From JBFLYE01 sp040756715 [NCBI: bacterium] (lineage in GTDB: Bacteria > UBA9089 > UBA9088): 13,089 bases of DNA. This document shows positions 2,407-9,029 of the stretch, piece after piece. The stretch spans positions 1 through 13,089 of the forward strand of contig JBFLYE010000133.1 of the NCBI GenBank assembly GCA_040756715.1, in the 5' to 3' direction. Made by a program: the position numbers and the translations under genes. The notes beneath the pieces were generated by a model that did no database searches, was not told where the DNA came from, and worked only from the letters and a program-made list of their open reading frames with translations. Within the stretch, counting starts at the first letter, position 1, and each line of letters opens with the position of its first letter.

Positions 2407-2856
2407 ATGCAAAGGTCTATTTTTTCTGGTTTGGTGGGAATATCCTTATTTTTCTTGCAAAGCCTTTATGCTGATACAATCTATCTTCATGACGGCTCCT
2501 CTATATTGGGTGAGATTATTGAAAGCATCCCAGGTGTCTCTTACACCCTAAAGAGGAAGGATGAGACAATCCAGGTCTTTAAAATGGAGGATGTTTGGAA
2601 GACAAGCTTTGAAGAAAAAGAAGCCTATGAGGATAGCCTTTATCTTAAGGATGGAGGGATATATTTTAATCTCGGGCTTGCCTTCTTTATCAAGCAAAAT
2701 ATGAAATCTTCCTTAGAGATACTAGGGGAGTGCATTAAGAAATTTGAAAGCCTTTCAAAGGCAGCCTCTGTTTTGGGATTCCCAGCCGATGAGGTTTCTC
2801 TCTCCCTTACTGGCAAGCCAAAGGTGTCCAAGGAAGAGATAAAGAAGCTATTATAG
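2407..2856 (+). CDS. Small secreted protein of unknown function, possibly truncated at its 3' end
   Basis: A 149-residue protein with a clear signal peptide: basic start MQR, hydrophobic core at about 5-20, and likely cleavage after LYA at residue 22. The mature part opens with a short beta-rich module, DTIYLHDGSSILGEIIES (about 23-40), of the 'DGS-IxGxIIE' kind common in small periplasmic proteins. A helical, TPR-like stretch follows (about 85-115, YFNLGLAFFIKQNMKSSLEILGECI). The Shine-Dalgarno AAAAGGGG (2392-2399) lies 7 bases before the ATG, inside the end of the preceding gene. Its TAG stop (2854-2856) lies within the first bases of repeat copy B, so the native C-terminus may have been replaced by element insertion or recombination. 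I do not recognise the family. Confidence 0.65.
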   Translation: MQRSIFSGLVGISLFFLQSLYADTIYLHDGSSILGEIIESIPGVSYTLKRKDETIQVFKMEDVWKTSFEEKEAYEDSLYLKDGGIYFNLGLAFFIKQNMKSSLEILGECIKKFESLSKAASVLGFPADEVSLSLTGKPKVSKEEIKKLL

Positions 2857-3092
2857 TATCTTCCATTACTTAGTGCAAAAATAGATAGGGTTGTGTTTAT
2901 CTGTTAAAAATTCATCCACCTTTTAAGAAATTTTGAATTCTAAATTTTGAATTTTGAATTGAAGGTTTAAGTTTTATAAAATTTTTTCCCTTTTAATTCA
3001 AAATTCAACATTCAAAATTCATAATTTTATAAAGTTTTCCTTAAGATTATCTAAACACATACATTTTGTAAAGCGTTATGGAATTAACTATA
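2852..3092 (+). repeat. MITE-like element, copy B (complete, 241 bp)
   Basis: Complete copy. Its outer 18 bases form imperfect terminal inverted repeats: left TATAGTATCTTCCATTAC and the reverse complement of the right end TATAGTTAATTCCATAAC match at 14 of 18 positions. Both edges can be read as a TA duplication (2852-2853 and 3091-3092) around a TAGT...ACTA core, as in TA-targeting IS630/Tc1-type MITEs. Arms at 2935-2960 and 2995-3020 pair at about 23 of 26 positions around a 34-base loop. It differs from copy C by one indel and one substitution. It supplies the stop codon of the gene on its left and abuts a cyclase lacking its 5' half on its right. Confidence 0.85.
2935..3020. repeat. Central foldback of repeat copy B
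   Basis: Inverted arms built of AATTCAA/AATTTTG heptamers (2935-2960 and 2995-3020) enclose a loop of 34 bases. As RNA or single-stranded DNA this would form a long AU-rich hairpin. It could slow transcription or protect the 3' end of the upstream message, but lacks the GC-rich stem of a standard intrinsic terminator. The equivalent arms in copy C are at 4267-4292 and 4327-4352. Confidence 0.7.
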
Positions 3093-3133: not shown

Positions 3134-4156
3134 GTGCTGATTGGTCAAACTGGCCCAAGCATTGGCGATTATAGCCCAACCCCTATCTCTTCCTTCTCTC
3201 CCAATCTCTTTATCCACAGAGAGGTAGTCGCCAATCTCCTTGAGGATGATACCCTCTATTCCCCTCCCCTTTGGCTTACTCCCACAATCATTATTCTCTT
3301 TTCTCTCTTGGCCGGGCTTACTACTTTGTTTCCGGTAAGGATAAATGCCCTTCTTTTCCCTGCTTCTCTTTTTATGTATCTTTTCCTTTCCTTTTTTCTC
3401 TTTCTAAAGGGAATTCTTTTAAATGTCTTCTCTCCTATCTTGGCAGGCTTTCTTTCCTATAGCGCATCCACCGGATATGCTTTATTTTTTGAGGAGAAAG
3501 AGAAAAGGAGGATAAGGTTTTTCTTTAAGAGGTATGTATCCGAAGGTGTGGTGGATAAGATATTGAATAGGCAATTTGAGGCATTAAGGAGAAAGGAGCT
3601 TACCATTTTATTTTCTGATATAAAGGGATTTGGTGAGTTTTCCGAAAGGGCACAACCTGAGGAGATAACTGAGATGCTGAGAAGATACTTTGATGAGATG
3701 ACTGAGATTGTCTTTAAATATGGGGGGACATTAGATAAATTTATCGGTGATGGAATGCTTGCCTTCTTTGGTGATCCCGATGAACTCCCTAATCATGCAT
3801 TATCTGCGGTTAACTCTGCGCTTGAAATGCAAAAAAAGGGTTCTCTGCTAAACAAGGAATGGGAAAGGGAGGGAAGAGAGACAATTGAAATAAAGATTGG
3901 GATAAATACAGGGTTTGTCACTGTGGGTGCGATTGGTTCAAAGCGAAGGTCTGAATATACGGTTCTGGGAAGGGAGGTAAACCTTGCCCAAAGGCTTGAG
4001 GCAAAGGCAACCCCGGGAAAGATTCTTATCTCCCACCGAACATTCTCTTTGGTTAAAGATAGGATAAAGGCAAAAGAATTGGGAGAAATAGAGGTTAAGG
4101 GAGAAAGAGAGCCGGTTATGGTCTATGAGGTTGATCCTTCTTTAATCGACCTATGA
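3134..4156 (+). CDS. Class III adenylate cyclase, 5'-truncated (remnant of CHASE2 sensor, transmembrane helices, cyclase domain)
   Basis: The encoded 340 residues begin at the very end of a CHASE2 extracytoplasmic sensor (LIGQTGPSIGDYSPTP and IHREVVANLLEDDTLYSPPLW, about 2-47). Three membrane helices follow (about 49-118), then an intact catalytic domain (about 155-335). Metal-binding aspartates are D162 (FSDIKGF) and D206 (FIGDGM). K202 and T276 are the adenine-type substrate-selecting residues; N283 and R287 are the transition-state pair. It would make cyclic AMP from ATP at the inner membrane. Family proteins carry roughly 250 more N-terminal residues. Here CHASE2-like residues (FSDFKQKAVLIG) continue in frame upstream of the GTG to the edge of repeat copy B at 3092. 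No ATG, GTG or TTG occurs in that upstream frame, which stays open back to 2963, and no well-spaced Shine-Dalgarno precedes the GTG. It is therefore probably a truncated gene, perhaps unexpressed. Confidence 0.8.
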   Translation: MLIGQTGPSIGDYSPTPISSFSPNLFIHREVVANLLEDDTLYSPPLWLTPTIIILFSLLAGLTTLFPVRINALLFPASLFMYLFLSFFLFLKGILLNVFSPILAGFLSYSASTGYALFFEEKEKRRIRFFFKRYVSEGVVDKILNRQFEALRRKELTILFSDIKGFGEFSERAQPEEITEMLRRYFDEMTEIVFKYGGTLDKFIGDGMLAFFGDPDELPNHALSAVNSALEMQKKGSLLNKEWEREGRETIEIKIGINTGFVTVGAIGSKRRSEYTVLGREVNLAQRLEAKATPGKILISHRTFSLVKDRIKAKELGEIEVKGEREPVMVYEVDPSLIDL

Positions 4157-4184
4157 TACCCTGTGATTGACAAGCATCATCACT

Positions 4185-4424
4185 TATAGTATCTTCCATT
4201 ACTTAGTGCAAAAATAGATAGGGTGTGTTTATCTGTTAAAAATTCATCCACCTTTTAAGAAATTTTGAATTCTAAATTTTGAATTTTGAATTGAAGGTTT
4301 AAGTTTTATAAAATTTTTTCCCTTTTAATTCAAAATTCAACATTCAAAATTCATAATTTTATAAAGTTTTCCTTAAGATTATCTAAACACATACATTTTG
4401 TAAAGCGTTATGGAATCAACTATA
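4185..4424 (+). repeat. MITE-like element, copy C (complete, 240 bp)
   Basis: Complete copy in the same orientation as copy B, with the same TATAGT...ACTATA ends and central foldback. Differences seen by eye are one missing T in the left third (GGGTGTG versus GGGTTGTG) and one T-to-C change near the right end (GGAATCAAC). The near identity implies recent spread or ongoing recombination. It begins 28 bases after the cyclase stop, so the truncated cyclase lies between two direct copies. Confidence 0.85.
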
Positions 4425-4615: not shown

Positions 4616-5494
4616 ATGTTTAAAGGGTCTATAGTTCCTATCATAACGCCATTTAGGGATGATTGCTCAATTGATTATGAAACATTAGAGAAGCTTATTG
4701 AGTTCCATATTGAGAAGGGGACAAATGGGTTTGTTCCTGTAGGGACAACCGGAGAATCTGCAACCCTATCACATAAAGAGCATCGGGATGTTGTAAAATT
4801 TACCATTGATATTGTAAAAAAAAGAATACCTGTAATTGCAGGTTGTGGTTCAAATTCAACATATGAGGCAATTGAGCTTGCAAAACAAGCAGAAGATGAT
4901 GGTGCAGATGGAATATTAAGCATTACACCATATTACAACAAGCCAACCCAGGATGGCTTAATTGCCCATTTTGAAGAGCTAGCAAAGAATATAAGGCTTC
5001 CTATTATTCTTTATAATGTCCCGGGAAGAACCGGTGTAAATATGATGCCTGAGACGGTTTTTAAATTATCATCTATTGAAAACATTGTTGGAATAAAGGA
5101 GGCATCGGGAAACCTTATTCAGGCAGCAGAGATAATCAAGCTCTGTAATGGAAAAATGGCTGTATTTTGTGGAGAGGATGCCCTAGCGTTTCCAATGATG
5201 ACAATTGGTGCAAAAGGCTCTATTGCCGCAAGTGCGAATGTATGTCCACTTGATTTTGCCTCAATGATAGAGGAGGTAGAGGAAGATATACAAAGGGCAA
5301 GGTCTCTCTATTATAAATTGCTTCCTTTATGCAAGGCGATGTTTTTAGAGACAAATCCAGCACCGGTTAAGGAGGCATTGTTCATAATGGGGCTTATTCC
5401 AAATCCTAAGGTTAGGCTTCCCCTTGTTAGGGTAAAGGAGGAGACAGCCAAAAAGATAAGGGATGTCCTTTTATCGCTTGGGGTTATAAAATGA
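4616..5494 (+). CDS. dapA: 4-hydroxy-tetrahydrodipicolinate synthase
   Basis: Condenses pyruvate with aspartate semialdehyde, the first committed step of the diaminopimelate/lysine branch; cytoplasmic (beta/alpha)8 barrel, usually a tetramer. The 292 residues match the usual family length, and key residues fall at E. coli numbering: T44-T45 in PVGTTGESATLS, Y107 in TPYYNKP, Y133 in LYNVPGRTG with R138, and the Schiff-base lysine K161 in GIKEASG. A strong GGGGAGG Shine-Dalgarno lies 8 bases before the ATG, with a near-consensus promoter upstream. It is the first gene of a dapA-dapB-protease operon; its TGA overlaps the dapB ATG by 4 bases, which favours translational coupling. Confidence 0.97.
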   Translation: MFKGSIVPIITPFRDDCSIDYETLEKLIEFHIEKGTNGFVPVGTTGESATLSHKEHRDVVKFTIDIVKKRIPVIAGCGSNSTYEAIELAKQAEDDGADGILSITPYYNKPTQDGLIAHFEELAKNIRLPIILYNVPGRTGVNMMPETVFKLSSIENIVGIKEASGNLIQAAEIIKLCNGKMAVFCGEDALAFPMMTIGAKGSIAASANVCPLDFASMIEEVEEDIQRARSLYYKLLPLCKAMFLETNPAPVKEALFIMGLIPNPKVRLPLVRVKEETAKKIRDVLLSLGVIK

Positions 5495-6255
5495 TAAAAG
5501 TAATTATTCTTGGGGCAGCAGGAAGGATGGGTTCTTCTATTGCAAGGATAGCAAGCGAGGATTCTCAAATAAGGATCACTGGTTTGGTTGAGAAAAAGGG
5601 TCATCCAATGATTGGAGCAAACCTTTATGGATGCGAGATTTCTAATGAGCTGTTAGATGTTATAAATAAAGGTGATTGTTTAATTGATTTTACAAGCCCT
5701 GATTCCCTGAGAGAACATATTGATATTGCAAAAGAGAATGAAAGGGCGATGGTTATTGGAACAACGGGTCTTTCAAAGGATCAAATGGCACATATGAAAA
5801 GGGCATCAAAGCACATCCCTATTCTCTATTCCTCAAATATGTCCTTTGGGATGAATGTGATATTTAAAATATTGCCCCAAATTTCAAAGCTTCTTTCCTC
5901 CTTTGACCTTGAGATAATTGAGGCACACCATAAGCATAAGCTTGACTCTCCCTCGGGAACCGCAAAGAGGCTCTATGAGATATTAGCAGAATCTCGTGGA
6001 TATGATATTGAAAGAGCAGCCGTGCATGGAAGAAATGGCAAAAAGAAGAAAGAGGACAATGAGATAGGTGTGATGAGTTTAAGGGTAGGTGATGTTGTTG
6101 GAGACCACACAATTATATTTGGTGGTAGTGGCGAGAGAATTGAGCTTACCCATCGGGCAACCTCAAGGGATGTTTTTGCCTATGGTGCGATTAGGGCAGC
6201 TAAATTTATTGTCCATAAAGAGCCAAAATTATATTCTATCCTTGATCTTCTTTAG
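5491..6255 (+). CDS. dapB: 4-hydroxy-tetrahydrodipicolinate reductase
   Basis: Reduces the DapA product to tetrahydrodipicolinate with NAD(P)H. The 254 residues are within the normal range. The N-terminal Rossmann fold has the nucleotide-binding GAAGRMG (about 8-14) and a DFTSPD strand turn (66-71). The substrate domain has the signature EAHHKHKLDSPSGTA, in which H146 and K150 are the catalytic pair and S155-G156-T157 binds the substrate carboxylate. The C-terminal segment GSGERIELTHRATSRDVFAYGA is also characteristic. The start overlaps dapA by four bases (ATGA). The next gene begins on the last base of its TAG stop. Confidence 0.97.
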   Translation: MIKVIILGAAGRMGSSIARIASEDSQIRITGLVEKKGHPMIGANLYGCEISNELLDVINKGDCLIDFTSPDSLREHIDIAKENERAMVIGTTGLSKDQMAHMKRASKHIPILYSSNMSFGMNVIFKILPQISKLLSSFDLEIIEAHHKHKLDSPSGTAKRLYEILAESRGYDIERAAVHGRNGKKKKEDNEIGVMSLRVGDVVGDHTIIFGGSGERIELTHRATSRDVFAYGAIRAAKFIVHKEPKLYSILDLL

Positions 6256-9029
6256 TGAAAAGGCTTCTTTTATTTCTCCTTATCCCATTTCTTGTTTTTT
6301 CTGCTTATAAAGAGGGTGAGGTTTTAGTAAAGGTAAAAGACAAAAAAGCCCTCTCTAACCTTGGCATTTCAATTCTTTCCCAAGAGCATCTTTTTGATAA
6401 AACCTACAAGCTTTCTGTTTCAGGGGATATTTTTGAGATTATCTCATCCTTAAAGAAAAATCCGGATGTAGTCTATGCCGAGCCGAATTATATAAGGCAT
6501 ATTTGTATTAGTCCAAATGACCCTGATTTCAGCAAACAATGGGGGCTTAATAAAGTTTCTGCACCTTCTGCCTGGGATATAAGCACAGGAACAGATAATG
6601 TAATTATTGCAATTGTAGATACAGGGGTTGATTATACTCATCCTGACCTTGCCGGAAAGGTTATAAAAGGCAGGGATTTTGTCAATAATGACAATGATCC
6701 AATGGATGACAATGAGCATGGTACACATGTTGCTGGAATTGCCTCTGCAATTACAAATAATGCTATTGGCATTGCAGGTCTTGCCTGGAATTGTAAGCTT
6801 CTGGCAGTAAAATGCCTTGATGATAAAGGTTTTGGCAATGATGCTGATATTGATAAAGCAATAAGATATGCGGCAGATAATGGTGCAAAGGTGATAAATA
6901 TGAGCTTTGGCGGAGAGGATGTAGGAGAAACCATAAAAGATGCCTGTGATTATGCCTATAATAAGGGTGTATTTCTGGTTGCAGCAGCTGGGAATTACCC
7001 TCAGATACCCTATGGTTCAGAATGTTATCCTGCCGCCTATGATAATGTTATGGCAGTGGCAGCAACCAATCAAAGCGACCGCAAGGCAGATTTTTCCAAT
7101 TATGGCAACTGGGTTGATGTATCTGCACCGGGTGTGGATATTTATAGCACAATAAGAAATAATAGCTATGCCTATAAGGATGGAACCTCAATGGCAACAC
7201 CATTTGTTGCCAGTTTAGGAGGGCTTATTTTCTCAAAAAATCCATTATGGAATAATAATATGGTGATGAGGGCAATTAAGGAAGGTGGTGATGATATTGG
7301 AGAATATAAGATTGGAAGAAGGATAAATGCCAAAAAAAGCCTTAATTTTAATATCTCAACCAAAACCTGGACATTCATGGTCTATTTAGACGCTGATAAT
7401 AACCTGGAAAGCAATGCAATTGATGATTTTTTAGAAATGTCAAGCATTGGCTCAAATGATGATATAAACATTGTTGTCCAGATGGATAGAATTAACGGAT
7501 ATAATTCTTCACATAACAATTGGACAGGAACAAAAAGGTTTTATATTACAAAAGATATGACGCCAGACCCAGAAAATGCTATTGATGAGATAGGAGAGGC
7601 AAATATGGGGGAGGCAAATACCTTAAAGAATTTTATAAATTGGGCAAAAGGCTCATATCCGGCAGAAAATTATGCCTTGGTTTTTTGGGACCATGGAAGT
7701 GGCTGGAAGACAAAGGCATTAGAAAAAAGACCAAAGTGGGTATGTTGTGATGACACAAATAATGATTCCCTTTCCTTAAAGGAATTAAAAGAAGCCTTTT
7801 CTTCCTGTGGAAAGATTAGATTAATTGGCTTTGATGCCTGCTTAATGGCAATGGCAGAGGTTGCGCATCAGATAAAAGATTACGGAGAGATTATGGTTGC
7901 CTCAGAGGAGGTAGAACCAGAGGATGGTTGGGCATATAATAAAATATTGGCTAATGTTAGCTCAAGCACCACCCCATCTTCCTTGGCAGAAACCATTGTC
8001 CAAACCTATGTTTCTTCATATCCAAATAGCGAGGTAACCCTATCTTCCATTGACCTATTAAAGGTAGGAAGCCTTGCCTTATCTTTGGGAAGCATTACCT
8101 CAACAAATGATTGGGACAAAATAAGCACAGCAAGGGATAATGTTATATTTACTGAGGGGGATACCTCATACATTGACCTCTTTGACTTTGCCAATAGGCT
8201 AGAGGTAAGCCTTGTCTCACCTATTCTTTTTTCTTCCCATACCACAGCCTCAAAAAATTACTCTGGCCTTTCTATTTATTTTCCCAAAGAAGACGAGGGC
8301 TATTTGGGAACCTATACCCAGCTTACCTTTGCCAAAGATACAGATTGGGATGAGTTTATCCTATGGTTTCTCAATTTTTATTATAATCCCCAAGAACAAG
8401 CTACGATTTCTACAAATAATCTTGAGCTTCTTATCCCTCCCAATACATTTGATCTGCCTTTTAAAATTTATATCGCCACAAGCTCAGAAACAAATGTGCC
8501 AAAAGGGATAAAGCCGGTGATGGGATGGGATATCTCTGCTTCCGCACCCCTTAAGGGAACACTAACCGCCAGATTTTTTTACGATGAGACAAAAGGCATT
8601 GTAGGAGGAACAATCAAAGAGAGGGATTTATGTATCTTTCAGGATGGAATTGCAATCCCATATTTTATTGATCTCTCATCAAATATAATCATTGCCACAA
8701 TCACAGAGCATCTTTCCTTATTCACCATTGGCGGAACACCAACCTATCCAGAAGAGATAACAAAACCAACCGTATTTCCCAATCCATTTGTTTGGCATAA
8801 GCATGAATTTCTAACCTTTGGAGACCCAAATATAGTAGAAAAGAGGCTTCCTCCTTCTGGAAGCATAAGGATATACAACATTGCCGGTGAGCTAATTGAC
8901 GAGCTTTCTATAAATCCAGAGGACAATGGAAGAAAAATATGGAATCCTAAAGAAAAGAAATTAGCCTCTGGCGTTTATCTATTTGTGATTAACAAAAAAG
9001 CCAGGGGAAAGATTGGAATTATAAAATAA
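6255..9029 (+). CDS. Secreted double protease: subtilisin (S8) domain fused to clostripain (C11) domain, with Por/FlgD-like C-terminal tail
   Basis: A 924-residue exported protein. A signal peptide (KRLLLFLLIPFLVFSA, about 2-17) is followed by an inhibitor-like prodomain (about 18-85, EGEVLVKVKD to VVYAEPNY). The S8 domain (about 95-365) has an intact triad: D122 (VDTGVD), H155 (EHGTHVAG) and S312 (GTSMATP), with oxyanion N247 (AAAGN). A C11 domain follows (about 370-710), beginning TWTFMVYLDADNNLE and carrying the dyad H480 (WDHGSGW) and C529 (FDACLM). After a beta-rich linker, the last 85 residues have FPNPF (841-845), IRIYNIAGELI and LASGVYLF (903-910), as in Por/T9SS-type or FlgD-like tails. 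GTG is chosen because it directly precedes the signal peptide and overlaps the dapB stop by one base (TAGTG). Both activities are predicted; substrate and role are unknown. Confidence 0.92.
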   Translation: MKRLLLFLLIPFLVFSAYKEGEVLVKVKDKKALSNLGISILSQEHLFDKTYKLSVSGDIFEIISSLKKNPDVVYAEPNYIRHICISPNDPDFSKQWGLNKVSAPSAWDISTGTDNVIIAIVDTGVDYTHPDLAGKVIKGRDFVNNDNDPMDDNEHGTHVAGIASAITNNAIGIAGLAWNCKLLAVKCLDDKGFGNDADIDKAIRYAADNGAKVINMSFGGEDVGETIKDACDYAYNKGVFLVAAAGNYPQIPYGSECYPAAYDNVMAVAATNQSDRKADFSNYGNWVDVSAPGVDIYSTIRNNSYAYKDGTSMATPFVASLGGLIFSKNPLWNNNMVMRAIKEGGDDIGEYKIGRRINAKKSLNFNISTKTWTFMVYLDADNNLESNAIDDFLEMSSIGSNDDINIVVQMDRINGYNSSHNNWTGTKRFYITKDMTPDPENAIDEIGEANMGEANTLKNFINWAKGSYPAENYALVFWDHGSGWKTKALEKRPKWVCCDDTNNDSLSLKELKEAFSSCGKIRLIGFDACLMAMAEVAHQIKDYGEIMVASEEVEPEDGWAYNKILANVSSSTTPSSLAETIVQTYVSSYPNSEVTLSSIDLLKVGSLALSLGSITSTNDWDKISTARDNVIFTEGDTSYIDLFDFANRLEVSLVSPILFSSHTTASKNYSGLSIYFPKEDEGYLGTYTQLTFAKDTDWDEFILWFLNFYYNPQEQATISTNNLELLIPPNTFDLPFKIYIATSSETNVPKGIKPVMGWDISASAPLKGTLTARFFYDETKGIVGGTIKERDLCIFQDGIAIPYFIDLSSNIIIATITEHLSLFTIGGTPTYPEEITKPTVFPNPFVWHKHEFLTFGDPNIVEKRLPPSGSIRIYNIAGELIDELSINPEDNGRKIWNPKEKKLASGVYLFVINKKARGKIGIIK

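What the first reader, a model, noticed from the sequence alone, without database searches (positions are those of the whole stretch)
6255..9029. One polypeptide with two complete, unrelated proteases (S8 subtilisin then C11 clostripain)
Both active sites look intact: D122/H155/S312 with N247 for S8, and H480/C529 for C11, behind a signal peptide and prodomain and followed by a Por/FlgD-like tail. S8 and C11 are normally separate secreted enzymes, and C11 enzymes often need proteolytic maturation. A serine protease that matures or presents a cysteine protease in the same chain, both carried by one surface-sorting tail, is a plausible and little-described design.
Basis: partly seen in the sequence, partly recalled or inferred. 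Interest (0 to 1): 0.72.

Follow-up and report, generated by a model that had tools for sequence, protein, structure and literature searches.

The report
Two unrelated proteases in one protein
One gene of an uncultured bacterium encodes a secreted protein holding a complete subtilisin-type and a complete clostripain-type protease; related bacteria share it, so it is no assembly error, but each protease keeps its own usual self-activation parts, so it looks like a two-in-one surface protease rather than a new activation mechanism.

Summary
Window 6255-9029 (+) is one 924-residue frame with prodomain, S8 (3e-58) and C11 (9e-55) above Pfam cut-offs, the named catalytic residues, and a weak T9SS-like tail. 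It is not a misassembly: the same order of parts occurs in G001 (same genus, also behind dapA-dapB), G002 (same family) and G003 (another family of the order), catalytic residues invariant. It was not seen elsewhere: not in the 14 phylum genomes outside this order, nor in any listed C11 frame of 600 aa or more among 839 genomes searched, with capped lists. The host has a SprA-like protein and 22 T9SS-type tails, so type IX export is plausible. Best reading: a self-maturing, surface-displayed dual-specificity protease, a new combination of known enzymes.

The parts
6255..9029 (+). gene of the S8-C11 protein, 924 aa, GTG start that shares one base with the dapB stop codon
6255..6305 (+). signal-peptide-like N-terminus (residues 1-17: two basic residues, hydrophobic stretch, S-A); judged by eye
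   Evidence: sequence; no signal peptide predictor was available
6303..6488 (+). S8 prodomain (residues 17-78, Fervidolysin_NPro-like)
   Evidence: above Pfam cut-off; also in the S8-only paralogue
6594..7277 (+). Peptidase_S8 catalytic domain (residues 114-341); triad D122/H155/S312, oxyanion N247
7356..8372 (+). Peptidase_C11 domain (Pfam 376-617; own profile to about residue 706); H480/C529, S1 acidic D527
   Evidence: fold search of the model finds clostripain first
7734..7736 (+). Lys494, predicted C11 self-cleavage residue (equivalent of PmC11 Lys147)
8376..8768 (+). segment without a Pfam match (residues 708-838), strands in the low-confidence models; G001 and G002 carry about 90 further residues before it
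8772..9026 (+). T9SS type A-like C-terminal tail (residues 840-924)
   Evidence: below cut-off here; G003 orthologue above cut-off; 22 such matches in this genome
4616..5494 (+). dapA, upstream neighbour
5491..6255 (+). dapB, directly upstream; the order dapA-dapB-protease is the same in G001

Best explanation
It is a secreted dual-specificity protease. Shown: one chain with signal-like start, S8 prodomain, S8 domain, C11 domain joined after only 4-12 residues, a further segment and a T9SS-like tail, conserved in two families of one order. Inferred: the chain passes the inner membrane by Sec and the outer membrane by the type IX (SprA/Sov) translocon, using the tail; the S8 part frees itself of its own prodomain; the C11 part cuts its own loop after Lys494, which opens an active site whose Asp527 sets a preference for Arg/Lys. 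The broad S8 and the basic-residue-specific C11 then digest outside protein at one spot on the cell surface, as two separate surface enzymes would, but in fixed 1:1 ratio.
For: Both domains above cut-off and all named catalytic residues invariant in 4 orthologues. Same architecture in 4 genomes. dN/dS of G000 against G001 is 0.31 for S8 and 0.32 for C11, of G000 against G002 0.26 and 0.13: both halves are under purifying selection. K or R at the PmC11 Lys147 column in 13 of 13 C11 rows, 4 fused and 9 unfused. The S8-only paralogue of 559 aa in G000 has the same kind of prodomain, S8 and tail without C11. SprA-like protein in 19 of 19 genomes of the phylum by an own profile, the one of G000 matching TIGR04189 at 3.1e-40 (137.5 bits, cut-off 200); TIGR04183 tails in 19 of 19 genomes, 22 matches in G000. 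A self-activating S8 that is a putative T9SS cargo is described (PMC11982257, abstract and passages).
Against: No activity, secretion or cleavage is shown. The tail of the window protein is below both cut-offs. SprA of G000 is below the curated cut-off and was missed by the Pfam SprA_N model in all five genomes of this order; the other T9SS parts (PorU, PorV, motor) were not looked for. A basic residue in the C11 loop is not universal: among the loops of more distant unfused C11 domains printed several have none near that place, by eye. A shared substrate for the two sites is inference. The fixed fusion over an order, with so short a linker, could mean a closer cooperation than mere co-delivery.
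Confidence: 0.6

Rival explanations
1. Zymogen coupling in cis, the first reader's idea: the S8 part, once free of its prodomain, cuts the C11 loop or the S8-C11 junction and so switches on the C11 part.
For: PmC11 needs a loop cut for full activity (PMC4850288); S8 lies directly before C11, where clostripain has its own propeptide (residues 28-50, PMC11296011); only 4-12 residues lie between the two profile matches.
Against: The C11 self-cleavage lysine and the Asp expected to make C11 cut after it are kept, as in the unfused near relatives. The standard route therefore needs no S8. The structure jobs do not fix how the domains face.
Confidence: 0.13
2. Reverse coupling: the Arg/Lys-specific C11 part cuts the S8 prodomain junction (a conserved Tyr-Ile-Arg before the mature start) or removes the chain's own T9SS tail, acting as its own sorting peptidase.
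For: Tyr-Ile-Arg stands at the prodomain end in the window, G001, G002 (contig piece L116) and G003 proteins. A clan CD enzyme of family C25, PorU, removes T9SS tails (recalled).
Against: The S8-only paralogue has a similar prodomain without C11, and S8 enzymes normally cut their own prodomain. PorU was not searched here.
Confidence: 0.07
3. Two genes joined by misassembly or a frame error in this draft genome.
For: The window is a whole contig of a 218-contig draft.
Against: The same order of parts in one frame occurs in G001, G002 and G003 at 52-79% identity, with other neighbours in G002 and G003.
Confidence: 0.01
4. One half is catalytically dead in practice and serves as a binding module.
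For: None found.
Against: The catalytic residues of both halves are invariant in the four orthologues, with dN/dS well under 1 for both.
Confidence: 0.05

Closest known systems
Thermitase / AK.1 protease (S8 family)
   Same: S8 domain; best solved relatives (1dbi 4.9e-78, 1thm 9.5e-73), triad conserved
   Different: those chains (279-280 residues) hold the S8 part only
Clostripain and PmC11 (C11 family)
   Same: fold, His/Cys dyad, Asp at Cys-2, basic residue at His+14 in the self-cleavage loop
   Different: no S8 part in the domain layout seen; clostripain has its own short propeptide and loses a nine-residue linker at two arginines, PmC11 is cut once
T9SS-tailed S8 peptidases, such as SpBcA of Bergeyella cardium (PMC11982257)
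   Same: secretory S8 with propeptide; putative T9SS cargo
   Different: no C11 domain in the domain figure legend seen; its propeptide is of another kind
559-aa S8-only paralogue of the same genome (G000:C186, L119)
   Same: same kind of prodomain, S8 and tail; its S8 groups with the S8 of the fusions
   Different: weak Ig-like matches in place of C11
C11 proteins with T9SS-like tails in the same phylum (for example G003:C1, L122)
   Same: C11 plus tail
   Different: no S8; cohesin and dockerin matches instead

Membership tests
Peptidase family S8 | Asp/His/Ser triad in S8 motifs with oxyanion Asn | tested here: met
Peptidase family S8 | catalytic activity on protein | not testable with these tools
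   needs an assay
Peptidase family C11 | His/Cys dyad in the C11 fold | tested here: met
Peptidase family C11 | acidic S1 residue two before Cys | tested here: met
   D527; Asp in 13 of 13 rows
Peptidase family C11 | basic self-cleavage residue in the loop after His | tested here: met
   K494; K or R in 13 of 13 rows at this column; cleavage itself not testable here
Clostripain as named by NCBI (TIGR02806) | score over the equivalog cut-off | tested here: not met
   97 bits against 550: a C11 relative, not clostripain itself
T9SS cargo | type A sorting domain at the C-terminus | tested here: inconclusive
   window tail below cut-offs, G001 tail below; G003 orthologue above
T9SS cargo | host has a SprA/Sov-like protein | tested here: met
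   own profile, 3.9e-217; the direct TIGR04189 match is significant but below its curated cut-off (137.5 of 200 bits)
T9SS cargo | other T9SS parts (motor, ring, PorU, PorV) | not tested

The most novel reading that the evidence does not exclude
An order-specific protease cascade folded into one chain: two unrelated zymogens mature each other in a fixed sequence on the cell surface after type IX export, so that neither is active before the other is in place.
Probability: 0.12. Interest if true: 0.65.

Novelty: new variant of a known kind. Interest (0 to 1): 0.38.

Why it matters
Two complete proteases of unrelated catalytic type in one secreted chain, kept over two families, is an architecture that none of the papers listed by my searches names in its title or the shown start of its abstract (one search listed 12 of 457). 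It gives a natural case to ask whether zymogens joined in one chain depend on each other. As a by-product, all 19 genomes held of this uncultured phylum carry SprA-like proteins and T9SS-type tails.

Tried and rejected
Misassembly: rejected by the orthologues.

S8-C11 fusion as a common architecture: not seen outside the order; 19 genomes of the phylum searched with the whole-protein profile (all 19 have some match); the whole fusion is in G000, G001, G002 and G003. G004 (78% complete) has only a contig-end N-terminus (L155), which cannot be told from an S8-only gene. C11 in 80 of 386 genomes. The listed frames of about 600 aa or more were fetched (one overlooked, G339:C118) and scanned with own S8 and C11 profiles: of 135 C11 frames in loci L001-L264 (104 distinct), S8 only in the four known genes. 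S8-C11 junction profile in 17, 7, 400 and 39 genomes. About ten listed rows begin 5-60 profile positions before the C11 boundary, so row ends alone do not decide. Together 839 different genomes bear handles G000-G838. Limits: lists were cut off ('more matches are not listed'); searches scored at most five and three candidates per genome; frames cut by contig ends may hide an S8 part.

Single origin of the fusion: not shown, not rejected. S8 tree: holding the four fusions together costs 7.0 log units, p-AU 0.138. C11 tree: the four form one side of a branch at 56/57 support, while in a wider set of rows the G003 copy was unresolved.

Structure: the job for residues 366-924 had mean pLDDT 50, good only over the C11 core; the whole-chain job had mean pLDDT 58, good over prodomain and S8. 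They do not tell how the two sites face. A joint alignment put C11 rows onto the S8 part and was discarded.

Promoters and terminators: counts as in shuffles, nothing to use.

Naming the phylum: failed; no tool told kinship of named genomes.

Full report
Observation. The frame at 6255-9029 (+) is real: 924 residues, GTG start, sharing one base with the stop of dapB. Pfam finds the Fervidolysin-type prodomain (17-78), Peptidase_S8 (114-341, 3.2e-58) and Peptidase_C11 (376-617, 9.2e-55), all above their cut-offs, and a weak Por_Secre_tail match at 840-916 below the cut-off (NCBIfam likewise). The best solved relatives of the S8 part are AK.1 protease and thermitase, and of the C11 part clostripain.

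Not an artefact. The window is one contig of a 1.55 Mb draft genome. A whole-chain match is found in G001 (same genus, 1031 aa, also directly behind dapA and dapB), G002 (same family; the 5' end lies at the end of one contig, L116, and the rest at the start of another, L114, and the two translations share 16 residues) and G003 (another family of the same order, 808 aa). Aligned (identity to the window 79, 64 and 52%), the catalytic residues, D527 and K494 are invariant. Pfam finds S8 and C11 in all three. dN/dS is below one in both halves: 0.31 and 0.32 against G001, 0.26 and 0.13 against G002; the distances to G003 are near saturation.

How far it goes. In the 19 genomes of the phylum that are held, the whole fusion is seen in those four, all in one order; the fifth genome of the order, G004, is 78% complete and has only a contig-end piece. 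Outside, C11 was found in 80 of 386 genomes, a set that includes those 19, and the junction profile was run on 17, 7, 400 and 39 genomes, some of them the same; 839 different genomes in all. Every listed C11 frame of about 600 aa or more was then fetched and scanned for S8; both domains in one frame were found only in the four known genes. The lists were cut off, one search scored at most five and at most three candidates per genome, and contig ends cut some frames, so a rare fusion elsewhere may have been missed. Trees neither show nor reject one origin. The S8 of the fusions groups with a 559-aa S8-only paralogue of the same genomes (93/91, 69/83 in the smaller set).

Maturation. PmC11 is held inactive by a loop and cuts itself after Lys147, with dyad His133/Cys179 and Asp177 in the S1 pocket; clostripain cuts at Arg181 and Arg190, with His176/Cys231 and Asp229 (PMC4850288 and PMC11296011, passages seen). 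Here the spacing is the same: His480, Lys494 (+14), Asp527, Cys529. In the alignment of 13 C11 domains (14 were given, one row with a stop was left out), 4 fused and 9 unfused, the column holds K or R in 13 of 13 (8 K, 5 R). These are near relatives, 8 of the 9 unfused ones from this phylum; among the more distant C11 loops printed several have no basic residue there, so the residue is not universal. The fused C11 thus keeps the parts of a self-activating enzyme, and the S8 keeps the prodomain that the S8-only paralogue also has. Between the two profile matches lie only 4-12 residues, so the domains are close.

Export. The tail is weak in the window protein and in G001 but passes TIGR04183 in the G003 orthologue (32.1 bits, cut-off 23). 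The Pfam SprA_N model found 7 of 19 genomes of the phylum, 2 of them over its cut-off, and none of this order. Three of these long proteins were held against NCBIfam: one passes the SprA family cut-off (211.9 of 200 bits), two fall just short (193.3 and 187.8). A profile made from the seven found 19 of 19 genomes, with a 1953-aa frame in G000 that matches TIGR04189 directly at 3.1e-40 but below the cut-off. As a check, the same profile was run on 33 of the 80 named genomes and found 9, among them Bacteroidetes, KSB1, Zixibacteriota and Krumholzibacteriia, and none of the Planctomycetota, Omnitrophota or Chloroflexi ones given; two of the nine (Armatimonadetes, Poribacteria) rest on frames too short for SprA. 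T9SS-type tails are in 19 of 19 genomes, 22 matches in G000. [quoted passage not shown] the phylum of the window could not be named, so I make no claim about that.

Literature. Searches for the combination listed 15, 1, 11 and 12 papers (the last out of 457), none with an S8-C11 chain in its title or the shown start of its abstract; a survey of prokaryotic serine protease architectures has no occurrence of C11, clostripain or cysteine in its main text (PMC2605481, find). The library holds only open papers.

Verdict. A true and conserved new domain combination of two known peptidase families, most likely a surface protease of two specificities that matures itself by the ordinary routes of each half. 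Moderate interest.

Noticed in passing
window 2851-3092 and 4184-4424: A direct repeat of about 240 nt (a 41-nt and a 204-nt part, 99-100% identical, spacing about 1332) flanks an adenylate/guanylate cyclase gene (3134-4156) whose frame begins in the last quarter of a CHASE2 match (24.9 bits, cut-off 26.3), so the front of that gene seems lost.
   Followed up: partly
G000:C50:5067-10766 (L258) and 18 other genomes of the phylum: SprA/Sov-like proteins in all 19 genomes held of this uncultured phylum, in the window's order missed by the Pfam SprA_N model.
   Followed up: partly
window 8373-8380, against L113 and L114: The window copy lacks about 90 residues between C11 and the next segment that G001 and G002 have.
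   Followed up: no
L125 (G000:C138): The only other C11 of the genome sits in a frame of 2627 aa that is open at both contig ends and, by eye, holds repeats resembling parallel beta-helix proteins.
   Followed up: no
L010 (G017:C336): One in-frame TAG inside a C11 match.
   Followed up: no
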